A stretch of DNA of 52,511 nucleotides from Acidimicrobiia bacterium (GTDB taxonomy: Bacteria > Actinomycetota > Acidimicrobiia > IMCC26256 > DASPTH01), in contig JBBDHW010000068.1 of assembly GCA_040880805.1 (NCBI GenBank), forward strand, positions 4,782 through 57,292. Reading direction: 5' to 3'. Numbering within the stretch: the stretch's first letter is position 1; each line of letters begins with the position of its first letter. Both the position numbers and the translations under genes were made by a program. Shown here piece after piece: positions 4,780-16,796 of the stretch. The notes under the pieces are model-generated. The model saw nothing but the letters and a program-made list of their open reading frames with translations. It searched no databases and was not told the DNA's origin.

Positions 4780-7056
4780 ATGGCGGAGAGCGTCGGGCCT
4801 ACCACGCCCATCGAGCTCGTCGAGGCGGTGTACGCACGGTTCCCCAAGGCGTTGGGCGACGCCCGCCGGCGCCTCGAACGCCCGCTGACCTTCGCCGAGA
4901 AGGTGCTGTTCGCCCACGCCGACGACCCCGCCACCGTCGGCATCGACCGCGGCGTCGACTACGCCGACTACCGGCCCGACCGCGTCGCGATGCAGGACGC
5001 CACCGCGCAGATGGCGCTGCTCCAGTTCATGACCGCAGGCCTGCCGCGCGTGCAGGTGCCCACCACGGTGCATTGCGACCACCTCATCCAGGCTCGCGTG
5101 GGCGCCGACATCGATCTCCGCAGCGCGCTCGACGTGAACTCCGAGGTGTACGAGTTCCTCCGTACCGTGTCGGCGAAGTACGGCGCCGGGTTCTGGAAGC
5201 CGGGCTCCGGCATCATCCACCAGGTCGTCCTCGAGCAGTACGCGTTCCCCGGCGGGATGATGATCGGCACCGACAGCCACACGCCCAACGCGGGTGGCCT
5301 CGGCATGGTCGCCATCGGTGTCGGGGGCGCCGACGCCGTCGATGTGATGGCCGGTTGGCCGTTCAACACGCGCGTCCCGCACCTCATCGGCGTGCACCTC
5401 CACGGGGCGCTGTCGGGCTGGGCCGCGTCGAAGGACATCATCCTCGCGGTCGCCGGCATCCTCACCGTGAAGGGCGGCACCGACGCGATCGTCGAGTACT
5501 TCGGCGAGGGTGCGGAATCGATCTCCGCCACCGGCAAGGCCACGATCTGCAATATGGGTGCGGAGATCGGCGCGACCTGCTCGCTGTTCGGCTACGACGC
5601 GCAGTCGGCCGCGTACCTGAAGGCCACCGGACGCGAGGCGATCGCCGATCTTGCCGACGCGCACGCCGAACACCTCCGGATCGACCGCGAAGTACTCGCC
5701 GACCCCGAGCGGTTCTTCGACCGCGTGATCGACATCGACCTCGACGAGCTCGGGCCGCACCTCGTGGGTCCGCATACGCCCGATCTCGATCGTCCGATCG
5801 CCGACGTCGGCAAGGCCGCGCGCGAGGAGGGCTACCCGGTCGACATCCGGTACGCACTCGTCGGTTCGTGCACGAACTCTTCGTACGAAGACATCGGGCG
5901 CGCTGCGCACGTCGCGCGGCAGGCGCACGCGGCGGGGCTCACGGTGAAGTCGCCGCTGCTCATCACGCCGGGGTCGGAGCAGGTGCGCGCGACCATCGAG
6001 CGCGACGGCCTCCTCGACGACCTCGAAGCGATCGGCGCCACCGTGCTCGCGAACGCGTGCGGCCCCTGCATCGGCCAGTGGCAACGCGACGACATCGAGA
6101 AGGGTGAACGCAACACGATCGTGTCGTCGTTCAACCGCAACTTCCCGGCTCGGAACGACGGCAACGCGGCCACGCTGTCGTTCATCGGCTCGCCTGAGAC
6201 CGTCACTGCGATGGCGTTGACGGGAAGACTCGATGTCGATTTCGTGCACGAGCCACTCGAGTCGCCCGACGGCACGTTGGTGCTGCTCGAGCCGCCGGTG
6301 GCCGACCGGCTGCCGGCGAAAGGATTCGATCCCGGCGAGTCGGGCTTCAGCGCGCCCGCCGACGACTCCACTACCGTCGAGGTCTTCGTGAATCCCGACT
6401 CGGAACGGCTCGAGCTCCTCGAGCCCTTCCTGCCGTGGAACGGGCGCGACTTCACCGGCGTACGGGTGCTGGCGAAGGCCGCAGGTAAGTGCACGACCGA
6501 CCACATCTCACCGGCGGGCCCGTGGCTCCGGTACCGAGGCCACCTCACGAACATCTCCGGAAACCTGTTCAGCGGTGTGAACAACGCGTTCGCACTCGAT
6601 GCGGCCGGCATGGGCATCGACGCGCGCGACGGGTCCGTGAGGCCGTTGCCCGACCTCGCGCGCGAATACAAGGAAGCGGGAATCTCGTGGATCGTCATCG
6701 GCGACGAGAACTACGGCGAGGGATCGTCGCGTGAGCACGCGGCGATGGAGCCGCGGTTCATGAACGGTATGGCCACGATCGTGCGGTCGTTCGCGCGCAT
6801 CGCGGAGGTGAACCTCAAGAAGCAGGGCATGCTCGCGCTCACGTTCGCCAACGTCGACGACTACGAGCGCGTGCTCGCCGAAGACGTGGTCGACATCGTG
6901 GGCCTCGCCGAGCTCGCGCCAGGGAAGCCGGTGAAGGTCGTGCTGCACCACGCCAACGGCACCACCGACGAGATCTCCACCACGCACACGATGTCCGACG
7001 AGCACATCGCGTGGTTCCGCGCCGGCTCGGCGCTCAACGTGCTGCGCGGAGGTTGA
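4780..7056 (+). CDS. acn: Aconitate hydratase (mitochondrial-type aconitase)
   Basis: A full-length 758-residue aconitase that interconverts citrate and isocitrate in the TCA cycle in the cytosol. The three [4Fe-4S] ligands are visible: Cys364 in VGSCTNSSYED and Cys427/Cys430 in ANACGPCIGQW. Substrate-binding signatures are also intact: GTDSHTPNAGGLGM (about 163-176), SSFNRNFPARNDG, and the C-terminal swivel domain with GDENYGEGSSREHAA, which carries the catalytic Ser. The size and order match the mitochondrial type rather than the 900-residue AcnA type usual in many actinobacteria. GAGGAG sits 6 nt before the ATG. The last 23 bases overlap the convergent toxin gene. It is one of several Fe-S genes in this region. 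Confidence 0.96.
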   Translation: MAESVGPTTPIELVEAVYARFPKALGDARRRLERPLTFAEKVLFAHADDPATVGIDRGVDYADYRPDRVAMQDATAQMALLQFMTAGLPRVQVPTTVHCDHLIQARVGADIDLRSALDVNSEVYEFLRTVSAKYGAGFWKPGSGIIHQVVLEQYAFPGGMMIGTDSHTPNAGGLGMVAIGVGGADAVDVMAGWPFNTRVPHLIGVHLHGALSGWAASKDIILAVAGILTVKGGTDAIVEYFGEGAESISATGKATICNMGAEIGATCSLFGYDAQSAAYLKATGREAIADLADAHAEHLRIDREVLADPERFFDRVIDIDLDELGPHLVGPHTPDLDRPIADVGKAAREEGYPVDIRYALVGSCTNSSYEDIGRAAHVARQAHAAGLTVKSPLLITPGSEQVRATIERDGLLDDLEAIGATVLANACGPCIGQWQRDDIEKGERNTIVSSFNRNFPARNDGNAATLSFIGSPETVTAMALTGRLDVDFVHEPLESPDGTLVLLEPPVADRLPAKGFDPGESGFSAPADDSTTVEVFVNPDSERLELLEPFLPWNGRDFTGVRVLAKAAGKCTTDHISPAGPWLRYRGHLTNISGNLFSGVNNAFALDAAGMGIDARDGSVRPLPDLAREYKEAGISWIVIGDENYGEGSSREHAAMEPRFMNGMATIVRSFARIAEVNLKKQGMLALTFANVDDYERVLAEDVVDIVGLAELAPGKPVKVVLHHANGTTDEISTTHTMSDEHIAWFRAGSALNVLRGG

Positions 7057-7423
7057 GCACTTCGACGTCGTACGGCTCGAATGCTCGGTCGATCGTGACG
7101 ATCGTGAGGTCTTCGGCTCGAGCCTGCGCGATCAGCAGGCGGTCGAAGGGGTCGCCGTGATGACGAGGAAGCGCGCCCGCGGCCACGGCATGTTCGAGCG
7201 TGATCGCCAACGCGCCGATCCTGTCGTTCGCGAGCTCTTCCTGCAGATTGTCCGGCGTGCGGAGCTTTCCTTGCGCGTGCTTGATCGACATCTCCCAGGC
7301 AGTTGCCGCGCTCACCAGCACGTTGTTCGCGGGCTCCGCGATCGCCACACGAGCCTGCGTCGGGATCCGGGTTGGATCGTCGAGCCACCAGATCGCGACG
7401 TGGGTGTCGAGCAGCAGGTTCAC
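7034..7423 (-). CDS. PIN-domain toxin, VapC-like (type II TA)
   Basis: A 129-residue PIN-domain ribonuclease. It starts NLLLDTHVAIWWLDDP, where the first acidic metal ligand is the D of LLLDTH, and continues with AATAWEMSIKHAQGKL (second acidic residue), HGDPFDRLLIAQA (third) and VTIDRAFEPYDV. The group is the VapC/PIN type paired with Phd/YefM antitoxins. The start is GTG at 7423, overlapping the antitoxin stop as GTGA, which signals translational coupling. An upstream in-frame start exists but would lie inside the antitoxin gene. The 3' end overlaps the aconitase gene by 23 bp. The RNA target is unknown. Confidence 0.87.
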   Translation of the reverse strand: MNLLLDTHVAIWWLDDPTRIPTQARVAIAEPANNVLVSAATAWEMSIKHAQGKLRTPDNLQEELANDRIGALAITLEHAVAAGALPRHHGDPFDRLLIAQARAEDLTIVTIDRAFEPYDVEVLNLRAAR

Positions 7424-7656
7424 TCGTCGCCGCCGTAGAACATGCGCTCGATCTCCGCGTCGTATTCGTCGAAGTCGGGAGCGATCCACACCCTGCCCTT
7501 CCATTGGCCGCCTTCGCGCGACTTCTTCGTCTGACCGACGGGAACGAGGCGAACTTGTGGCACGCCTGCTCGCGCGATCACGATCTCCTCGCCCGCTGCG
7601 GCGCGCTCGACCAGTCGGGAGAGGTGTGTCTTGGCCGCGTGCATGTTGACTTGCAT
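7420..7656 (-). CDS. Phd/YefM family antitoxin
   Basis: A 78-residue antitoxin of the prevent-host-death/YefM type. The N-terminal DNA-binding part reads MHAAKTHLSRLVERAAAGEEIVIARAGVPQVRLVP and the acidic C-terminus (APDFDEYDAEIERMFYGGDE) is the likely toxin-binding tail. It is the first gene of a two-gene operon with the PIN toxin and shares 4 bases with it. TAAGCT lies 6 nt before the ATG at 7656, so a leaderless mRNA is likely; an internal ATG four codons later is the other start. The promoter is only 32 bp from the divergent HAD gene. Confidence 0.88.
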   Translation of the reverse strand: MQVNMHAAKTHLSRLVERAAAGEEIVIARAGVPQVRLVPVGQTKKSREGGQWKGRVWIAPDFDEYDAEIERMFYGGDE

Positions 7657-7662
7657 CCGATG

Positions 7663-8252: not shown

Positions 8253-8272
8253 CGAACGCTCGCGGTTCGTTA
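8250..8272. terminator. Hairpin spanning both stop codons of a convergent pair
   Basis: TAACGAAC (8250-8257) and GTTCGTTA (8265-8272) form a perfect 8-bp stem with a 7-nt loop. The left arm begins with the TAA stop of the HAD gene and the right arm ends with the reverse complement of the TAA stop of the nitroreductase-like gene. No T-run follows. It is a likely bidirectional terminator. Confidence 0.6.
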
Positions 8273-8680
8273 CCCGACGCGCTCGAGTGCAATCACGGGG
8301 ATCTTCCGAGTCGTCTTCCTCTGGTACTCGCCGAACTGCGGGAACCGCTCCGCGATCCGCGCGTAGAGCTCGTCGTGCTGGTCGTCGGGCACGACCGACG
8401 CCTTCGCGTCATAGGACTCACCACTGTGCTCGACGTTGACGGTGGGATTCGCGACCAGGTTGTGGAACCACGCCGGATGTGCGGGCGCGCCGCCCTTCGA
8501 CGCGATCACGTAGATGCGCCCGTCGTCGTCGAAGACCGCGAGCGGCGAGACGCGCTTGCGCCCGCTCTTTGCCCCGGTGGTGGTGAGGAGGAGCAACGAT
8601 GCGGGCCCGAACTCGAGTCGGCCTCCGTTCGCGCGGAACTGCTCGATCATCTGGTCATTGAAGTCGTTGATGTTGGTCAT
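8270..8680 (-). CDS. Nitroreductase/deazaflavin (F420)-dependent oxidoreductase family protein
   Basis: A 136-residue protein of the Ddn-like split-barrel family, which uses F420H2 to reduce quinones, nitroaromatics or other substrates. Recognisable parts are NDQMIEQFRANGGRLEFGPASLLLLTTTGAKSGRKRVSPLAVFDDDGRIYVIASKGG, where TTGAKSGRKRVSPL is the cofactor-phosphate motif, then PAWFHNLVANPTVNVE and the tail ERFPQFGEYQRKTTRKIPVIALERVG. Its ATG overlaps the stop of the radical SAM gene (ATGA, 8677-8680), so it is the third gene of the SufR-like/radical SAM operon. That suggests a linked redox role, but its substrate is unknown. Confidence 0.88.
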   Translation of the reverse strand: MTNINDFNDQMIEQFRANGGRLEFGPASLLLLTTTGAKSGRKRVSPLAVFDDDGRIYVIASKGGAPAHPAWFHNLVANPTVNVEHSGESYDAKASVVPDDQHDELYARIAERFPQFGEYQRKTTRKIPVIALERVG

Positions 8681-10008
8681 CGGGTGACTGCCTTCAGTTG
8701 AGTATCGGTGGGTTCCGCGCAGCAGAACCAGCTCTCGGTGAGGCGGGGCCGATCGGTGACGCAGCCCACCAGGCTGACCGGAGGGATCCCAACCGTGTCG
8801 CGCACACGCGCGTATGTATCGGTGATCGGCTCGGCGCGCTCGACGCTCTCCTCGACGAGTGCCGCGAGTTTGCGCTGCAGCTCGTCCATGCCGGAATCCG
8901 CGGGCGTCCACTCGTAGGTGAGCCGCGCCGGATCCCACGGGCCGAGCCGGGGCGCGAGGTCGGGGTGACCAAGTAGGAGCGAGCCCTCGGGAAGCAGCAG
9001 CCGGATCGTGTACTGCACTGGATCGACGCTGCCGACCAGCTCGTTGTCGTACACGAAGTCGAGGAGAGCTGCGATGTCGGCGCGCGTTGTCCACGGCGTG
9101 AAGGGCAGGAACGACGGCCGGACGTCGATGCCGTGCGCGCGCAGCAGCTCGACTGCCTGTGCCTCGTCGGCCGCAGTGTGACCCTTGTCGAGCCGCTCGA
9201 GGGTGTCGTTGTTCAGCGACTCGAACGCGGAGACCACGAAGAGACATCCGGCATCGCGGAGCTCGGGTAGGAGATCAGCGTGCCGCAGCACGTGTTCGAC
9301 TTTGGTGGTGCAGTCGAACGTGAGCTGCGGGAACCGCTCGTGCATGGCGCGCACCACGCGCATGGAGTGGTGCGGCGCGTTGAGGAAGTCGGGGTCGCCG
9401 AAGGTGATGTGCTGCGCGCCTGCATCGACCACCTGCTCGATGTCGGCGAGCACGGCGTCGTCGGCGACGAGGCGAACCCGGCCGTCGTAGACGACCGGTA
9501 CCGGGCAATGGCGGCAGCGGTGCGCGCAACCGCGGCTCGCCTCCACGGAGCCGACGAGCCGCATCTCGTTGCCGACTGCGAGCCGCACGTAGCGGTCGAG
9601 CGGCGGGAGCAGTTCGCGTGCCGGCAGCGCGGGAGCGACTCGGCCGAGCTGCACCGGCGTACCGGCGGGCTCGCCTTCGACCCACGCCACGAGCGCGTCG
9701 TCGTATTCACCCGCGATCACACGGTCGGTCACGTCGTCGCACATGCCGGCGTAGAGGCCGTAGCAACAGGTGGGCTTGGCGATGGTCATCGCGAGCTCTC
9801 GGGCCAGGCGGGTGGCGGTGTGCATCGGCACCGAGAACGCGACCCGATCGGCCCACTCGGCGAGCGCGGGGTCCCACGGATCGACCGACGTGTCGAGCAC
9901 GCGCACGTCGTGGCCCTGTTCGCGCAGGCGCGTCGCGGGCCTCGCGAGGTTGGCCGGTTGCTGACCGAGCTCGTAGGTGGCGACGAGGAGCACGCGCACA
10001 GTGGTCAC
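8677..10008 (-). CDS. CCAEP-tail radical SAM protein with B12-binding-like N-terminus
   Basis: A 443-residue radical SAM enzyme. Residues 4-110 resemble a cobalamin-binding fold (RVLLVATYELGQQPANLARPATRLREQGHDVRVLD) but lack the DxHxxG cobalamin His motif. The [4Fe-4S] SAM motif is Cys161-x3-Cys165-x2-Cys168 (RGCAHRCRHCPV). Further core motifs are HITFGDPDFLN and VSAFESLNNDTLERLDKGHT. The C-terminus carries WFCCAEPTD (Cys429, Cys430), the mark of a family I know as CUAEP/CCAEP-tail radical SAM (seleno)proteins, in which some members have selenocysteine at the second position. Both codons here are TGC. The start GTG at 10008 overlaps the regulator stop as GTGA. The reaction is unknown. Confidence 0.88.
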   Translation of the reverse strand: MTTVRVLLVATYELGQQPANLARPATRLREQGHDVRVLDTSVDPWDPALAEWADRVAFSVPMHTATRLARELAMTIAKPTCCYGLYAGMCDDVTDRVIAGEYDDALVAWVEGEPAGTPVQLGRVAPALPARELLPPLDRYVRLAVGNEMRLVGSVEASRGCAHRCRHCPVPVVYDGRVRLVADDAVLADIEQVVDAGAQHITFGDPDFLNAPHHSMRVVRAMHERFPQLTFDCTTKVEHVLRHADLLPELRDAGCLFVVSAFESLNNDTLERLDKGHTAADEAQAVELLRAHGIDVRPSFLPFTPWTTRADIAALLDFVYDNELVGSVDPVQYTIRLLLPEGSLLLGHPDLAPRLGPWDPARLTYEWTPADSGMDELQRKLAALVEESVERAEPITDTYARVRDTVGIPPVSLVGCVTDRPRLTESWFCCAEPTDTQLKAVTR

Positions 10009-10664
10009 GCTCCGCGTCGGATGCTGCCCGGGCGGATGCGATACGTACAGCGGCGCCCGTCGGCGAGGAGGTGCTCGGTTCGCTCGACGGTGACGTCGTC
10101 GCCGAGCGCCTTGCCGAACAACCGCAGCTCGGCGCTGCAGAACCCGAGGCACGACTTCGCGGCGTCGCAGATCGGGCAGTGGTGTTCGATCAGAAGGTAT
10201 CCGCCGTCGTCGTCGACGACCTCGGCCATGTAGCCCTCCGCGGTGCGCTGCGCGGCGAGCGCGACGACGCGCGGCCGCAACGACGATCCTGAAGCGCGCA
10301 GCACCTCGCGGTACGTGCGGAGCTGCTCGTCGGTCCGGGCGTCGATCACACGCGTGAGCCCGTCCTCGCCGAGTGCGTCGCGGATCGCGTCGACGAGCTG
10401 CACGGTGAGCTCGCCGTGGCGATCGGGGAACAGGCGATGGCCGTCGTCGGTGACCGACCACCGCGCCGCTGGCCGCCCCGGCCGTTCGGCCGCAGTGGCG
10501 TTGGCGGCGACGATGCCCTCGGCCTCGAGCGCGGCAAGGTGCTGACGTACCGCGGCTTCGGTGAGGCCGAGTTCCGCCGCGAGTCCGGCTGCGGTGGCGG
10601 GCTCCTCGAGCTTGAGGATCTCGAGCACCCGTTGGCGCGCCGGGGTGATGCGGACGTCGGTCAC
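10005..10664 (-). CDS. SufR-like Fe-S cluster-sensing transcriptional regulator
   Basis: A 219-residue regulator. The winged helix spans residues 5-75 (ARQRVLEILKLEEPATAAGLAAELGLTEAAVRQHLAALEAEGIV). The C-terminal sensor has cysteines at 163, 166, 172, 176 and 206 in HHCPICDAAKSCLGFCSAELRLFGKALG and DGRRCTYRI, the layout of SufR-type [4Fe-4S] repressors of Fe-S biogenesis. Here it does not sit with suf genes. It heads an operon with the CCAEP radical SAM and Ddn-like genes and is divergent from the Rieske protein, so it probably controls both sides. The start is GTG at 10664, with TACCCT 7 nt upstream and no Shine-Dalgarno sequence. Confidence 0.87.
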   Translation of the reverse strand: MTDVRITPARQRVLEILKLEEPATAAGLAAELGLTEAAVRQHLAALEAEGIVAANATAAERPGRPAARWSVTDDGHRLFPDRHGELTVQLVDAIRDALGEDGLTRVIDARTDEQLRTYREVLRASGSSLRPRVVALAAQRTAEGYMAEVVDDDGGYLLIEHHCPICDAAKSCLGFCSAELRLFGKALGDDVTVERTEHLLADGRRCTYRIRPGSIRRGA

Positions 10665-10671
10665 GGCAGGG

Positions 10672-10677
10672 AGGGTA
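10672..10677 (-). promoter_or_regulatory. TACCCT -10 element of the SufR-like gene
   Basis: Minus-strand TACCCT, spacer CCCTGCC, then GTG at 10664. No ribosome-binding site is present, so a leaderless transcript is likely. Confidence 0.5.
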
Positions 10678-10687
10678 TCGCGTTTCG

Positions 10688-10718
10688 CAAGGATTCCCTT
10701 GACAAACTCGCGTGCGAG
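10688..10718. promoter_or_regulatory. Divergent promoter with two palindromes (candidate SufR-like operators)
   Basis: The 114-bp gap between the SufR-like and Rieske genes holds CAAG-GATTCC-CTTG (10688-10701), a 4-6-4 palindrome extendable by one pair per arm. It overlaps a TTGACA hexamer (10699-10704) pointing to the Rieske gene. A second palindrome, CTCGC-GT-GCGAG, lies at 10707-10718. The spacing resembles the CAAC-N6-GTTG operator known for cyanobacterial SufR. No good -10 is found at the usual distance from TTGACA. The regulator gene has its own TACCCT -10 at 10672-10677. Confidence 0.45.
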
Positions 10719-10778
10719 GGCGCAGAGTATCGCAAGCAGTCACTTCCGTTATTCGCCTACCGCCGGTTCGGAGGCAGC

Positions 10779-12521
10779 ATGAGCGTGCACGCGGGATCGC
10801 TGGAGGAGCTCCGCAAGACCGGGCGGCTCCTCACGAAGGTCGGCTCCTGGCCGGTGGTGGTGTTCTGGGACGAAGACCGCGCGTACGCGATCGAGGACCG
10901 GTGCCCGCACATGGGATTCCCCTTGCACCAGGGCACGGTCGAGTGCGGGCTCGTCACCTGTCACTGGCACAACGCGCGTTTCGATCTCGCGAGTGGCTGC
11001 ACGCTCGATCCGTTCGCCGACGACGCACGCGGCTTCGATGTCACCATCGACGGTGACGACGTCCTCGTCGACGCTCGCGACACCGGCGATCCCGTACGGC
11101 ACCTTCGCCGCCGGTTGGAGCAGGGTCTCGAAGACGGCCTCACGCTGGTGATGGCGAAGTCCGTCCTCGGTCTCCTCGAAGCCGGTGTTCCACCGTCCGA
11201 CATCGTGCGCGTCGGGCTCGACTTCGGCACGCGGTACCGCGCGGGCGGCTGGGGTGCGGGGCTCACAGTGCTGGTCGCGATGGCCAACCTGCTCCCGCAT
11301 CTCGACGAGGCCGACCGTGCGCTCGCGCTCACGCACGGCCTCGTGTTCGTGTCGCGCGACACGAGCAACCAGCCGCCGCGCTTCGCGCTCGACCCGCTCG
11401 ACGACGGCGTCGACTCGACGCGCCTCGGCGAGTGGTACCGCCGGTTCGTGGAGACCCGGTCGTCCGACGCGGCGGAGCGTTCGCTCGCCACCGCGATCGC
11501 GTCGGCGGCGGGCGACGAGGTCGAGGAGATGATGTTCGCCGCCGTTACCGACCACGTGTTCATCGACGGCGGGCACACGATCGACTTCACGAACAAGGCG
11601 TTCGAGGCGCTCGGCTACGTCGGTCCCGACGCGGCAGCGACGGTGCTGCCCACGCTCGTGCGTGAGACCGCCGCGGCATCCCGCTCCGAGGAGGGGAGCG
11701 AGTGGCGCCACCCCCACAACCTCGCGACGCTCGTGCAACGTGCGAACGAGCGCCTGCCGCAGGCCTGGGCCGAGGGTGAGGCGCAGCGCGGCGAGTCGGG
11801 CGACCATGACGTCGCCGACCTCGGGTGGGAGCTCCTCACCGACGACCCCGACGCCGTGGTCGACGCGCTCTTGAGCTCGATGGCGCGCGGTGCCACCGCC
11901 GAGCAACTCGGGCGTGCGCTCGCGTTCGCCGCTTCACTGCGCATCGTGCGCTTCCACACCCAGAACGACCACGGCGATTGGAACGCCGTGCACCACGCGT
12001 TCACCGCCGCGAACGGGTTGCACCAGGCGCTGCGACGCAACCCAACGCCGGAGCTCCTGCGCGGCCTGGTGCACGGCGCGCTGCGCGTCTACCTCGACCG
12101 GTTCCTCAACGTTCCGGCGGCGCGCCTTCCGACCGGCATGTCCACCGGCACCGAGGGCGACCTCGCCGAGCTCGAGGCGTGCTGGGATGTCCAGGGCGGT
12201 GTCAACGAAGCCGGCGGGATCGCCTATGGCTACCTGAAGGCGGGCGGTGACCCCGCAGGGCTCATCGCAACTCTGGGACACGCGCTGCTGCGCGAAGACT
12301 GCGGCTTCCACTGGTACCAGGTGATGGAGGCGGGGGTTCGACAGTACGAGGCGTGGCCGCGCGGGTCGGAGGAAGGGATCCTCGTGCTCACCGCGCTCGC
12401 GCGGTTCCTCGCGGCGCACACGCCGACACGGCGTGAGATGTCGCGTGTCGTCGACATCGCGGCGCGGCTGCGCCGCGGTGAGGAGCTCTACGAGGAGAGC
12501 TCCACGTCGAGCGCGGCGTAA
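10779..12521 (+). CDS. Rieske [2Fe-2S] protein with long alpha-helical C-terminal domain
   Basis: A 580-residue protein. Residues 1-100 form a Rieske domain with the ligand sets CPH (Cys42, His44) and CHWH (Cys61, His64) in RCPHMGFPLHQGTVECGLVTCHWHNARFDL. Residues 110-580 are almost wholly helical, His-rich and soluble-looking, and lack the mononuclear iron site of ring-hydroxylating oxygenases. Motifs in this part include TDHVFIDGGHTIDFTNKAFE and HTQNDHGDWNAVHHAFTAANGLHQALRR. GGAGG sits 4 nt before the ATG at 10779, which decides the start against longer in-frame options. It is divergent from the SufR-like/radical SAM operon and probably its redox partner. It overlaps the convergent ATP-grasp gene by 34 bp. 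Confidence 0.85.
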   Translation: MSVHAGSLEELRKTGRLLTKVGSWPVVVFWDEDRAYAIEDRCPHMGFPLHQGTVECGLVTCHWHNARFDLASGCTLDPFADDARGFDVTIDGDDVLVDARDTGDPVRHLRRRLEQGLEDGLTLVMAKSVLGLLEAGVPPSDIVRVGLDFGTRYRAGGWGAGLTVLVAMANLLPHLDEADRALALTHGLVFVSRDTSNQPPRFALDPLDDGVDSTRLGEWYRRFVETRSSDAAERSLATAIASAAGDEVEEMMFAAVTDHVFIDGGHTIDFTNKAFEALGYVGPDAAATVLPTLVRETAAASRSEEGSEWRHPHNLATLVQRANERLPQAWAEGEAQRGESGDHDVADLGWELLTDDPDAVVDALLSSMARGATAEQLGRALAFAASLRIVRFHTQNDHGDWNAVHHAFTAANGLHQALRRNPTPELLRGLVHGALRVYLDRFLNVPAARLPTGMSTGTEGDLAELEACWDVQGGVNEAGGIAYGYLKAGGDPAGLIATLGHALLREDCGFHWYQVMEAGVRQYEAWPRGSEEGILVLTALARFLAAHTPTRREMSRVVDIAARLRRGEELYEESSTSSAA

Positions 12522-13690
12522 CCCGCGCGGAGCGCGGTTTCCACCTGCTCCGGGCGCTCCGCGCGCGCGAAGAGGAAGCCGAGGTAGCGGTCGCCCTCGG
12601 GGAGCGGTACCACGCGGCGTCCGCGCGGCACCGTGATCTCGAGCCCCGTGATACCGGCCACCGCGCGCGCATCGTCCTGCCCGCGCACTACTTCGAGCAC
12701 GCCCGCGCGCGAGATGGGCAGCATCATCACGCCCGACGCGGCGCGCTCGCGTTCGAGATCGTCGAGCGGCAGTCCGAGCGCGTGGCGCAGGATCAGCTCC
12801 TCGAGCGCGATGCCCGCGCCGAAGCGCAGCGTGCGCGCGCACAACCCGCCGATCGAACGCGCCGCGATCTCGACGACCCACCTGCGATCGCCCGCGATGC
12901 GGATCTCGGCGTGGATCGGTCCGCCCGTGAGACCGATGGCGCGCGCGGCGCGCGCGGTGAGGTCGCTCACTGCTGCGAGTGTCTCCGGAGACAGGCGTGA
13001 CGGCGTGACGTAGATGGTTTCTTCGAAATACGGGCCCTCGAGCGGGTCGGGCTTGTCGAATATCGCCAGGATCTCGACGCGCTCCGGGTCGAGGACCAGT
13101 CCTTCGACCGCGACCTCCACGCCCGGTACGTACTCCTCCACGAGCAGCGGCCCGTCGACGATCGCGCGAATGCGCTCGGCCGCGACGGTCGCGGCCACCA
13201 CGTCGTCGGCTCGGATCACGCCCCGGCTGGCCGAGAGGCCGACCGGCTTCAGCACGCACGGGAACCCGATGTCCTCCGCTGCGTCAGCGATGCGCGAGAG
13301 ACGCTCGACGACCCGGAACCGGGGCTGAGGGATCCCCGCCCGGGCAAGGGCGTCGCGCATCACCGACTTGTCTCGAGTCGCCGAGACCGCGGCGGGGTCG
13401 TTGTGCGGCAATCCGAGCCGCTCCCCTGCTGCTGCTGCCACTTCCACGCCTTGGTCGTCGACCGCCACCACCGCGGCGATGGGCGAGCGCCCGTGGAGCG
13501 CGACGATGGCGTCGACCGCGGCGACGATGTCCGACAGCGGCACCACGACGGCCCGGTCGCCCATATCGCCCGCCATCGCTTGCGGCTCCTCGGAGCCCAC
13601 GACGACCTCGACCCCGAGCCGCGTGGCGGCTCGGACGAAATCGCTCGCCCGGTAGGTCGACGTGGGAAGCAGGAGAAGAACGCGAGTCAC
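12488..13690 (-). CDS. ATP-grasp domain protein
   Basis: A 400-residue ATP-grasp ligase. The N-terminal preATP-grasp Rossmann part starts TRVLLLLPTSTYRASDFVRAATRLGVEVVVGSE. The ATP-grasp core includes DKSVMRDALARAGIPQPRF, PCVLKPVGLSASRGVIRADD (ATP-binding Lys and flexible loop), LVEEYVPGVEVAVEGLV, and the metal site VVEIAARSIGGL. It probably joins a carboxylate to an amine, as in peptide or carboxylate-amine ligases; the substrates are unknown. The start GTG at 13690 lies only 18 bp from the start of the divergent Nfu gene. A weak CATGAT hexamer lies 6 nt upstream. The 3' end overlaps the Rieske gene by 34 bp. Confidence 0.88.
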   Translation of the reverse strand: MTRVLLLLPTSTYRASDFVRAATRLGVEVVVGSEEPQAMAGDMGDRAVVVPLSDIVAAVDAIVALHGRSPIAAVVAVDDQGVEVAAAAGERLGLPHNDPAAVSATRDKSVMRDALARAGIPQPRFRVVERLSRIADAAEDIGFPCVLKPVGLSASRGVIRADDVVAATVAAERIRAIVDGPLLVEEYVPGVEVAVEGLVLDPERVEILAIFDKPDPLEGPYFEETIYVTPSRLSPETLAAVSDLTARAARAIGLTGGPIHAEIRIAGDRRWVVEIAARSIGGLCARTLRFGAGIALEELILRHALGLPLDDLERERAASGVMMLPISRAGVLEVVRGQDDARAVAGITGLEITVPRGRRVVPLPEGDRYLGFLFARAERPEQVETALRAGYAALDVELSS

Positions 13691-13695
13691 GGACC

Positions 13696-13701
13696 TATCA
13701 T
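13696..13701 (+). promoter_or_regulatory. TATCAT -10 element of the Nfu gene
   Basis: TATCAT, spacer GGCGCGC (7 nt), then ATG at 13709. This decides the start against the ATG at 13700, which lies within the hexamer. On the other strand CATGAT overlaps the same bases and lies 6 nt before the ATP-grasp GTG, so two divergent leaderless promoters appear superimposed. Confidence 0.55.
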
Positions 13702-13708
13702 GGCGCGC

Positions 13709-14353
13709 ATGACGTCCGAAACTGCGAGCCCGATCCTCACCGTCACCGACGACGCGCTGGCCAAGGTGCTCGATGTGCGCGCGGCAGAGTCCGATCCCGA
13801 GTCCCTCGTGTTGTGGGTCGAGGTGAGCGGGCAGCAGGCCGGCGCCTACACGTACCTCATGGAGTTCCGCACCGAGTCCGAGCTCGACGACGACGTCGCC
13901 ATCCAGCACCACGACGACGTGTCGGTCGCGATCCCTGCCGACAGCGTCGACTCGTTGCGAGGCGCCACGCTGGAGCTGAGCGGTGGCGGCATGGTCATGC
14001 AGAACCCCAACCGCCCCGCGCCGGTCACACCGTTCTCACCCGCTGTCGATCCCAACCGCCCGCACGCCGACCTGTCGGGCGAGGTCTCCCAGCGTGTCAT
14101 GCAGGTGCTCGAGCAGGAGATCAATCCCGCGATCGCCGCGCACGGTGGGCAAGCGGAGCTCGTCGCCGTCGAAGGCTCGATCGCGTACCTGCGCCTGTCG
14201 GGTGGCTGCCAGGGCTGCGGCCTCGCGGCGGTCACGCTCAGCCAGGGCATCGAGGTCGCCATCCTCGATTCGGTTCCCGAGATCACCGAAGTGATCGACG
14301 TCACCGACCACGCTTCCGGCGCCAACCCCTTCTACGAAGCAGCGAAGAAGTAA
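13709..14353 (+). CDS. nfuA: NfuA-like Fe-S cluster scaffold (NifU C-terminal domain)
   Basis: A 214-residue two-domain protein. Residues 8-100 resemble an A-type (HesB/IscA) domain (TVTDDALAKVLDVRAAE ... LEFSGGGMVMQNPN-like end) but lack its three cysteines. Residues 125-200 are a NifU-like domain with the cluster-binding Cys167-x2-Cys170 (LSGGCQGCGLAAVTLSQGIEVAI). Such proteins carry and deliver [4Fe-4S] clusters to apo-enzymes, aconitase being a classic client. The start at 13709 is chosen from the -10 spacing. It lies between two Fe-S regulator loci. Confidence 0.9.
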   Translation: MTSETASPILTVTDDALAKVLDVRAAESDPESLVLWVEVSGQQAGAYTYLMEFRTESELDDDVAIQHHDDVSVAIPADSVDSLRGATLELSGGGMVMQNPNRPAPVTPFSPAVDPNRPHADLSGEVSQRVMQVLEQEINPAIAAHGGQAELVAVEGSIAYLRLSGGCQGCGLAAVTLSQGIEVAILDSVPEITEVIDVTDHASGANPFYEAAKK

Positions 14354-14422: not shown

Positions 14423-15145
14423 CTAGTCGAATCTTCGGGCGTCTTCCGCGGCGTAGAGGGCGACGGTGGTGTCGGCTTCGGCGTGCTGCTTGATCGAGTG
14501 GACGATGTTGGGCAGCAGTGACGCGGGGAGCGCGCACGTCATCTCGGTGGGCGGCATGCCCGTACGCACCCGGCTGAGCGCGCACCCCACGCTCGCGGCG
14601 GGCACGTGCTCTTCCTTCGCCACCGCGACGATGTGACACTGCGGCTTGCCCTCGATGCGCAAGCCCGGGATCGCGTCGGACAGCACCATGAGCTGACGGC
14701 CGGTGACGCGCAGGAACACCACGTCGGGGTCGACCGGCGTGTCCGCGAGCGGCCCGTACGTAACCGCGCCGGGCTTCTTGTGCACCACCGGGATCTGCGG
14801 GACAACGTCCATCGTGACCCAACCCGAATCGAGGAGCGCGGCGACGTCGGAGTTGCCCGCCACTTCCTCGAGGGTCTTGAAGCCGTGGGTCACGCTGCCG
14901 ACGCTGCAGTTGGCGTGATCGTCGGCGACGGTGCTGAAGGTTCGGTCCGCCGCTTTCATCCAGAACACACAGCCCGCGGGCACGCGCCCCGTGCGGCCGT
15001 CGGGCAGCGCGTCGGGCATCGGTTCCTCGAACGGCGCGACGCCCTCGAGCGGCGCGTCGGAGAACGTGATTGCGAGCGGCGGGGTCGCGAGGTGCAGCGT
15101 GGCGGTGAGCTCGGACGCGAGCTGGGACCAGTTGGTGTCGGCCAT
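14423..15145 (-). CDS. DUF169 domain-containing protein
   Basis: A 240-residue DUF169 protein of unknown function. Visible family features are PLAITFSD near residue 22, the Cys-bearing segments AGCVFWMKAADRTFSTVADDHANCSVGSVTHGF (about 57-90) and GKPQCHIVAVA, and the C-terminal SVGCALSRVRTGMPPTEMTCALPA. The several conserved Cys and His residues suggest a metal or thiol chemistry role, but none is established that I know of. It is the last gene of the Fe-S regulator/cysteine desulfurase/VOC operon, 10 bp after the VOC gene. Confidence 0.85.
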   Translation of the reverse strand: MADTNWSQLASELTATLHLATPPLAITFSDAPLEGVAPFEEPMPDALPDGRTGRVPAGCVFWMKAADRTFSTVADDHANCSVGSVTHGFKTLEEVAGNSDVAALLDSGWVTMDVVPQIPVVHKKPGAVTYGPLADTPVDPDVVFLRVTGRQLMVLSDAIPGLRIEGKPQCHIVAVAKEEHVPAASVGCALSRVRTGMPPTEMTCALPASLLPNIVHSIKQHAEADTTVALYAAEDARRFD

Positions 15146-15635: not shown

Positions 15636-16796
15636 TTAAGTTCGCAACCCCCTGAGTCGTTCGACGATTCCCGGGAACGCGCCCAGGAACGCTTGGATGT
15701 CGGCTTCGTTGGAGCTCCACCCGACGCTGGCCCGGAGCGAGTGATCGGCGTCGACCCCCATCGCTTCGAGCACGGGCGACGGCTCGAGCGACTCGCTGGA
15801 GCACGACGAGCCCGAATGGACCGCCACGCCGTGCTGATCGAGCGCGAGGAGGATGGGCTCGGCCTCGACACCACCGACGCCGAGGCACACGAGGTGGGGC
15901 AGGCAGGCGTCGGGGTCGCCGAAGCGCTCGACGTCGGCGACGGCGGCGAGCGTCTCCTTCGCGAGGCGGCCCGTCAACGCCCGTGCCGCGTCGGCCTCCT
16001 GCTCGAGGGTGTCGCCTGCCAGCTCCCCGGCGGCCGCGCCGAAGCCGACGATCGCGGGCACGTCCTCGATCCCGCCGCGGCGCGCGCGTTCCTGCGCACC
16101 GCCGACCACGAACGGAGGGAACCGGAGCCCACGCCGGACGAGGAGCGCGGCTGCGCCCTTCGGACCACCGAGCTTGTGCCCGGTGACCGAGCACAGGTCG
16201 GCGCCGAGCGCAGCGAAGTCGAGCGGCATGTGACCGACGGCGGCGCACGCGTCGACGTGCACAACCACACCGCGCTCGCGCGCTCCGGCGACGATCTCGG
16301 CCGCGGGCTGTACCGTGCCTACTTCGTGGTTGGCGAACTGCACCGACACGAGTGCGGTGTCGGGACGGATCGCGTGGAGCACCTCACCTGCACCGAAGCG
16401 ACCGGTGCGGTCGACACCAACGAGCGTGACCTCGGTACTTGGACCACGCGAGCACGCTTCGAGCACCGCGGAGTGCTCCACCGCGGTGGTCACGACGTGT
16501 CCGCCGCCGTGGCGTGTCAACGCACCCCACACCGCGGTGTTCACCGCTTCGGTTCCGCTCGACGTGAACACCACCTCGCGCGGGCGTGCGCCGAAGAGCG
16601 CGGCGACACATTCGCGCGCGTCTTCGATCGCGACACGCGTGATACGTCCCTCCGCGTGCAGACGGCCGGGATCGGCGGGATGTTCGCGGAGGAACGGAAG
16701 CATCGCTTCGACCGCTGCGGGACGGAGCGGCGAGGACGACGCGTGGTCGAGGTAGGCGCGTGGCACGTCAGACGCGCGCGACGCAGTGGTCGTCAC
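15636..16796 (-). CDS. Cysteine desulfurase (NifS/IscS family)
   Basis: A 386-residue PLP enzyme that takes sulfur from cysteine for Fe-S cluster and other thio-cofactor assembly. PLP-stacking His108 is in TTAVEHSAVLE, the PLP Lys208 is in SVTGHKLGGPKG, and the persulfide Cys332 is in HSGSSCSSESLEPSP. The N-terminus reads AYLDHASSSPLRP, a variant of the usual DNxATTP. The loop length fits the IscS/NifS group I type. The GTG start at 16796 overlaps the upstream regulator by 29 bp. With Mrp divergent and a cluster-sensing regulator in front, this is a local Fe-S assembly operon. Confidence 0.93.
   Translation of the reverse strand: MTTTASRASDVPRAYLDHASSSPLRPAAVEAMLPFLREHPADPGRLHAEGRITRVAIEDARECVAALFGARPREVVFTSSGTEAVNTAVWGALTRHGGGHVVTTAVEHSAVLEACSRGPSTEVTLVGVDRTGRFGAGEVLHAIRPDTALVSVQFANHEVGTVQPAAEIVAGARERGVVVHVDACAAVGHMPLDFAALGADLCSVTGHKLGGPKGAAALLVRRGLRFPPFVVGGAQERARRGGIEDVPAIVGFGAAAGELAGDTLEQEADAARALTGRLAKETLAAVADVERFGDPDACLPHLVCLGVGGVEAEPILLALDQHGVAVHSGSSCSSESLEPSPVLEAMGVDADHSLRASVGWSSNEADIQAFLGAFPGIVERLRGLRT

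What the first reader, a model, noticed from the sequence alone, without database searches (positions are those of the whole stretch)
8270..12521. SufR-like regulator + CCAEP-tail radical SAM + F420-type reductase facing a Rieske-helical protein
Three genes with 4-base overlaps (regulator, radical SAM with WFCCAEP tail, Ddn-like protein) are divergent from a 580-residue Rieske protein whose large helical domain I cannot assign. The radical SAM family with CUAEP/CCAEP tails has no known reaction that I am aware of. The layout suggests a cluster-status-controlled redox pathway: radical SAM catalysis, a Rieske electron donor and an F420 reductase. The N-terminus is B12-domain-like but lacks the cobalamin His. 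This is the best candidate here for an undescribed system.
Basis: partly seen in the sequence, partly recalled or inferred. Interest (0 to 1): 0.78.

Follow-up and report, generated by a model that had tools for sequence, protein, structure and literature searches.

The report
ArsL-like radical SAM with ATP-grasp partner

Summary
The genes are as described: regulator, CCAEP-tail radical SAM and Ddn-like protein overlap by 4 bases and diverge from a 580-aa Rieske protein. As a system the foursome fails: in 80 other CUAEP/CCAEP loci from many phyla, and about 30 from the same order, no Ddn homologue or Rieske-helical protein lies nearby. In 396 phylum genomes, 23/24 with the radical SAM carry this ATP-grasp, versus 10/372 without. 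The SufR-like regulator and Rieske-helical protein are a separate conserved pair that here splits the ATP-grasp/radical SAM tandem. The radical SAM is the sister family of ArsL (arsinothricin C-As bond): 43 family-invariant positions are shared, including the cluster cysteines and a C-terminal Cys-Cys, often Cys-Sec. ArsL-family plasmid clusters also carry an ATP-grasp. Most likely: SAM-derived group transfer to a soft atom held by the tail, then amide coupling by the ligase, in an iron-sulfur setting. Architecture is shown; chemistry is inferred.

The parts
8677..10008 (-). CCAEP-tail radical SAM protein (Cys form of the CUAEP family), 443 aa; cluster cysteines C161/C165/C168, C-terminal pair C429-C430. 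Module A.
   Evidence: NF040546 513.5 bits, over cut-off; AlphaFold pLDDT 95; invariant residues in 50 homologues
12488..13690 (-). ATP-grasp ligase, L-amino acid ligase type. Module A, conserved partner of the radical SAM.
   Evidence: ATP-grasp_4 92.3 bits, LAL_C2 46.3 bits; closest solved chain L-amino acid ligase BL00235, E 1.4e-32; 50/80 loci within 5 kb. Start codon inferred by reading the sequence.
13700..14353 (+). Nfu-type iron-sulfur carrier (A-type-like N-terminus plus NifU domain with CxxC), divergent from the ATP-grasp. Module A.
   Evidence: PF01106 73.7 bits; TIGR03341 89.5 bits, below cut-off; 49/80 loci within 5 kb
14423..15145 (-). DUF169 protein, frequent neighbour in close relatives
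   Evidence: PF02596 73.2 bits; 18/80 loci
15636..16796 (-). NifS-like cysteine desulfurase of the same block
   Evidence: synteny with L052, L056, L062, L089, L091, L095
17562..18719 (+). Mrp-like iron-sulfur carrier ATPase of the same block
   Evidence: synteny in the same loci
4780..7056 (+). Aconitase; directly follows the radical SAM in relatives
10005..10664 (-). SufR-like regulator. Module B; overlaps the radical SAM start by 4 bases.
   Evidence: TIGR02702 126.2 bits, below cut-off; C-terminal cysteines conserved with homologues; beside Rieske in 9 orthologous loci
10779..12521 (+). Rieske ferredoxin domain fused to an unassigned helical domain. Module B.
   Evidence: PF00355 51.6 bits; orthologues in same-class genomes
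8270..8680 (-). Ddn-like F420H2-dependent reductase family protein; local addition, not a conserved neighbour
   Evidence: PF04075 116.7 bits; 0/80 loci

Best explanation
Shown (I hold this at about 0.9): two unrelated modules overlap here. Module A, widespread, is Nfu / ATP-grasp ligase / CUAEP-type radical SAM, in this lineage set in an iron-sulfur block (Mrp, NifS, DUF169, aconitase). Module B is the divergent SufR-like regulator / Rieske-helical pair, which here lies between the ATP-grasp and the radical SAM, so that the radical SAM probably shares the regulator's transcript. Inferred (about 0.35): the radical SAM works like ArsL. It cleaves SAM and transfers a SAM-derived group, probably 3-amino-3-carboxypropyl, to a soft acceptor (a metalloid or chalcogen) held by the C-terminal Cys-Cys or Cys-Sec pair. 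The ATP-grasp ligase then couples the resulting amino acid through an amide bond. Nfu supplies or protects the [4Fe-4S] cluster. The product serves or protects iron-sulfur/lipoyl metabolism rather than being an exported antibiotic.
For: Partnership: ATP-grasp within 5 kb in 50/80 and Nfu in 49/80 homologous loci, with several gene orders and orientations in distant phyla; 23/24 versus 10/372 genomes, Fisher p = 2e-28. Insertion: same-order loci keep Nfu, ATP-grasp and radical SAM together, often followed by aconitase, without module B; module B stands alone in relatives. ArsL kinship: each family is the other's second best (266.5 and 335.8 bits, all others below 60), 33% identity, 43 shared invariant positions including C161/165/168 and the CC tail. 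RCCLKC/ArsL clusters in Priestia, Alicyclobacillus and Pantoea also carry an ATP-grasp. Sec: 30 of 74 tail codons are TGA and none is TAA or TAG. ArsL alone suffices for hydroxyarsinothricin formation in E. coli (PMC8552651). Iron-sulfur context recurs in distant phyla, with gene names read by eye.
Against: No ars genes were found to recur beside CUAEP genes, and the arsinothricin-resistance acetyltransferase ArsN1a is over cut-off in none of 64 genomes with or without the enzyme, so arsenic is not shown. The ATP-grasp/Nfu pair occurs without the radical SAM in some genomes. The CUAEP ATP-grasp is only about 24% identical to those of ArsL clusters. Sixteen family-conserved residues (such as H63, T64, H167, P206, K236) differ consistently from ArsL, so the substrate may differ. 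The nearest solved fold is AprD4, a dehydratase. The tail alignment rests on its C-terminal position, and the model's coordinates could not be read.
Confidence: 0.4

Rival explanations
1. One reading: one cluster-status-controlled redox pathway in which the regulator senses an iron-sulfur cluster, the Rieske-helical protein donates electrons to the radical SAM, and the Ddn-like protein completes an F420-linked reduction.
For: Exact 4-base overlaps of regulator, radical SAM and Ddn genes, divergent Rieske gene; the regulator keeps C-terminal cysteines shared with SufR-like homologues; one KSB1 locus has a small Rieske ferredoxin 236 bases behind the radical SAM.
Against: Ddn and Rieske-helical absent from all 80 homologous loci and about 30 same-order loci; Rieske/regulator pair conserved in genomes lacking the radical SAM, and unlinked where both occur.
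Confidence: 0.06
2. The radical SAM is an AprD4-like hydrogen-abstracting enzyme (5'-deoxyadenosyl radical) acting on the ATP-grasp product; the Cys-Sec/Cys-Cys tail is a redox pair that resets the active site, as in thioredoxin reductase, and binds no metalloid.
For: AprD4 is the best solved match (Z 27.3, 395 residues aligned) and, like this family, lacks the cobalamin motif; consistent differences from ArsL residues; no ars genes nearby.
Against: Sequence kinship is to ArsL (266.5 bits), not AprD4 (54.5 bits); ArsL clusters share the ATP-grasp partner.
Confidence: 0.3
3. The Nfu, Mrp, NifS and aconitase neighbourhood only reflects a housekeeping location; ATP-grasp and radical SAM make a secondary metabolite unrelated to iron-sulfur clusters.
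For: LipA, AceE and aconitase neighbours are lineage-specific; L-amino acid ligases typically make small peptides (named family, general knowledge).
Against: Nfu adjacency recurs in distant phyla in different orders (L106, L112, L113, L116, L118, L124, L125, L127, L131) and persists beside the ATP-grasp without the radical SAM.
Confidence: 0.2

Closest known systems
ArsL, arsinothricin biosynthesis radical SAM (NF040542, RCCLKC tail)
   Same: Sequence kinship over most of the length, 43 shared invariant positions, CxxxCxxC, C-terminal vicinal cysteines, an ATP-grasp gene in many clusters
   Different: Tail CUAEP/CCAEP, not RCCLKC; no ars, arsM, arsN1 or export genes; Nfu and iron-sulfur neighbours; 16 consistent residue differences; Sec in about 40% of tails
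AprD4 radical SAM diol-dehydratase
   Same: Nearest solved fold; cobalamin-like domain without the cobalamin motif
   Different: 54.5 bits against its family model (cut-off 500); no equivalent of the CUAEP tail is known to me
L-amino acid ligases BL00235 and BacD (for the ATP-grasp)
   Same: ATP-grasp_4 and LAL_C2 domains, E 1.4e-32 to BL00235
   Different: Genomic partners; substrate unknown
Cyanobacterial SufR (for the regulator)
   Same: HTH plus C-terminal cysteines; alignment over most of the length
   Different: Below the equivalog cut-off; divergent from a Rieske-helical gene, not from suf genes

Membership tests
NF040546 CUAEP/CCAEP radical SAM | Score over curated cut-off 500 and C[UC]AEP tail | tested here: met
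   513.5 bits, tail WFCCAEP
ArsL (NF040542) | Score over curated cut-off 450 | tested here: not met
   266.5 bits
ArsL (NF040542) | RCCLKC C-terminal tail | tested here: not met
   Tail is WFCCAEP; only the CC pair is shared
ArsL (NF040542) | Genes for arsenic handling (arsM, arsN1, arsQ or ars resistance) beside it | tested here: inconclusive
   Recurrent-neighbour clustering and reading of ORFs showed none; ArsN1a over cut-off in 0 of 64 genomes; not every neighbour was annotated
ArsL (NF040542) | Aminocarboxypropyl transfer to arsenite | not testable with these tools
   Needs an enzyme assay
B12-binding radical SAM | Cobalamin motif DxHxxG | tested here: not met
   0 of 50 members; B12-binding below cut-off
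AprD4 (NF033070) | Score over cut-off 500 | tested here: not met
   54.5 bits
SufR (TIGR02702) | Score over cut-off 178.8 | tested here: not met
   126.2 bits
SufR (TIGR02702) | [4Fe-4S] binding by conserved cysteines | not testable with these tools
   Five cysteines in the C-terminal part, three aligned in all homologues compared
F420H2-dependent quinone reductase / Ddn-like (PF04075) | Score over gathering cut-off | tested here: met
   116.7 bits versus 22
Rieske [2Fe-2S] (PF00355) | Score over cut-off and the two Cys/His ligand motifs | tested here: met
   51.6 bits; C42, H44, C61, H64 invariant
L-amino acid ligase (ATP-grasp_4 with LAL_C2) | Both domains over cut-off | tested here: met
   92.3 and 46.3 bits
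NfuA (TIGR03341) | Score over equivalog cut-off 269 | tested here: not met
   89.5 bits; NifU domain PF01106 over its cut-off

The most novel reading that the evidence does not exclude
A widespread, undescribed Cys-Sec-tailed radical SAM enzyme builds a carbon-metalloid or carbon-chalcogen bond from SAM's aminocarboxypropyl group, and its ATP-grasp partner turns the product into a small peptide that maintains or protects iron-sulfur/lipoyl enzymes: a new small-molecule branch of iron-sulfur homeostasis in Actinomycetota, Chloroflexota and several largely uncultured phyla.
Probability: 0.17. Interest if true: 0.88.

Novelty: new variant of a known kind. Interest (0 to 1): 0.52.

Why it matters
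A curated but uncharacterised selenoprotein family gains a testable function. Its partners (amino acid ligase, Nfu) and its sister enzyme (ArsL) point to one assay: does SAM cleavage give methylthioadenosine? ATP-grasp genes also sit in plasmid arsinothricin-type clusters, suggesting that arsinothricin peptides may exist. The case also shows how a compact operon-like layout in one genome can mislead.

Tried and rejected
Redox pathway of the four genes: rejected on co-occurrence. Arsinothricin-type antibiotic: weakened by the absence of recognisable ars neighbours and of ArsN1a over cut-off. Defence system: radical SAM, ATP-grasp and Rieske protein have no PADLOC match; the regulator matches only through its HTH. 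Structured RNA: no Rfam match in the window. Solved ArsL structure: none recognised among the hits (9ccb is MgmA). Papers naming CUAEP/CCAEP: none held; a 2026 review of prokaryotic selenoproteins does not mention the family. ArsS (TIGR04167) in the window's genome: only a weak match, below cut-off.
Full report
1. Observation. The genes lie where stated and the 4-base overlaps are real. Family assignments: Ddn-like PF04075, CUAEP/CCAEP radical SAM NF040546 over cut-off, a SufR-like regulator below the SufR equivalog cut-off, and a Rieske domain with an unassigned helical part.

2. NF040546 relatives were found in 24 of 396 sampled genomes of the phylum, in 80 kept loci with up to 10 kb flanks from many phyla (more exist, only the best 80 were kept) and in 32 of 58 genomes of the same order. 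Within 5 kb in the 80 loci: ATP-grasp 50, Nfu 49, DUF169 18, SufR-like 5, Ddn 0, Rieske-helical 0, plain Rieske ferredoxin 1. Many loci are cut by contig ends; among the 45 with at least 4 kb on both sides the counts are ATP-grasp 32, Nfu 33, Ddn 0, Rieske-helical 0. About 30 same-order loci (short flanks) mostly show Nfu, ATP-grasp and radical SAM together, often with aconitase behind, and never the window's arrangement.

3. The older block. Nearest relatives keep Mrp - HTH - NifS - (glyoxalase) - DUF169 - Nfu - ATP-grasp - radical SAM - aconitase (L052, L056, L062, L089, L091, L095). The window has the same genes in the same order, with the regulator/Rieske pair between ATP-grasp and radical SAM, and a Ddn-like gene, a HAD gene and a Phd/VapC-like pair between radical SAM and aconitase. 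That these are insertions is inferred from the relatives' layout.

4. Module B. The Rieske-helical protein has 14 close orthologues (58-69% identity) among 198 same-class genomes. In nine of them a regulator of 50-57% identity sits divergently beside it. Of the 12 that are in the same order, eight lack a detectable radical SAM; in three that have both (G430, G433, G457) the two genes lie on different contigs.

5. Genome-level association. On the same 396 genomes, 23 of 24 with the radical SAM also carry this ATP-grasp; 10 of 372 without it do (Fisher p = 2e-28). The genomes are related, so the p-value overstates independence; the varied gene orders in distant phyla (upstream, downstream, convergent) are the better evidence of repeated linkage. 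In genomes without the radical SAM the ATP-grasp still neighbours Nfu, so the ATP-grasp/Nfu link is at least as basic.

6. Selenocysteine. Of 74 readable tails in the named loci, 30 have TGA and 44 TGC/TGT at the second position; none has TAA or TAG. SelB over cut-off was found in 12 of 15 Sec-form genomes and 2 of 7 Cys-form genomes, the window's genome being one of the two (my tally). The public Thermomicrobium roseum record ends its CDS at this TGA although CUAEP continues in frame.

7. Kinship to ArsL. ArsL is the runner-up family for the window protein (266.5 bits) and NF040546 the runner-up for ArsL (335.8 bits), all others under 60 bits. Of positions conserved in at least 95% of CUAEP members, 43 are identical in three ArsL-family proteins, including the cluster cysteines and the CC tail, while 16 differ consistently. 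ArsL was shown to be sufficient for hydroxyarsinothricin formation in E. coli and was proposed to transfer 3-amino-3-carboxypropyl to arsenite (PMC8552651). RCCLKC clusters on plasmids of Priestia, Alicyclobacillus and Pantoea carry an annotated ATP-grasp gene within 4 kb; the Pseudomonas amygdali cluster does not in the stretch seen.

8. Structure. AlphaFold gives pLDDT 95.4. The best matches are AprD4 (Z 27.3, rmsd 4.1, 395 residues), MgmA, OxsB and TsrM. The absence of DxHxxG fits a cobalamin-like domain that binds no cobalamin, as in AprD4 (general knowledge). Coordinates could not be read, so the tail-to-cluster distance is untested.

9. Mechanism. Shown: domain content, conserved partners, Sec/Cys alternation, ArsL kinship. 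Inferred: aminocarboxypropyl transfer to a soft acceptor bound by the tail pair; amide coupling by the ligase; Nfu as cluster donor or protector. The iron-sulfur setting recurs: SufT-, SufS-, SufU- and Mrp-like genes in KSB1 (L118), a YggX-like protein in L105, L120 and L128, a CDGSH-like protein in L127 and L131, AceE-like genes in Chloroflexota and Actinomycetota, and LipA-like genes next to Chloroflexota copies (names by reading the sequences, not by a database search). Sec-containing proteins are often linked to metal or metalloid handling (PMC13188914). Arsenite attacks lipoyl groups (general knowledge), which would fit a protective role, but arsenic is not shown, and the lack of ars neighbours and of ArsN1a argues against an ArsL-identical product.

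10. Verdict. It is a new variant of a known kind (ArsL-type enzymes), of moderate interest now and high interest if the chemistry is confirmed.

Noticed in passing
L170:1741-2964, L171:6572-7777, L233:1442-2674, L234:1483-2706, L235:6572-7774: Plasmid arsinothricin-type (RCCLKC/ArsL) clusters of Priestia, Pantoea and Alicyclobacillus carry an ATP-grasp ligase, suggesting arsinothricin peptides analogous to bialaphos.
   Followed up: partly
L168:9935-11371: The Thermomicrobium roseum CUAEP gene is annotated as ending at an in-frame TGA; CUAEP continues in frame, so it is probably a misannotated selenoprotein.
   Followed up: yes
window 7034-7660 (-): Phd/YefM-like antitoxin and PIN-domain VapC-like toxin between the radical SAM and aconitase genes.
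   Followed up: no
window 11139-12521: The helical domain has invariant His/Asp/Trp residues (TDH...GH, RFH..ND..W..VHH, ED..FHW in close orthologues) and no Pfam match; it could be a catalytic domain served by its own Rieske centre.
   Followed up: partly
L190, L192, L194, L200: ATP-grasp/Nfu divergent pair without a radical SAM in nearly complete genomes: the pair may have a function of its own.
   Followed up: partly
L117, L124: Poribacteria CUAEP loci have SufR-like regulators within 3 kb as well as an adjacent or nearby Nfu gene.
   Followed up: no
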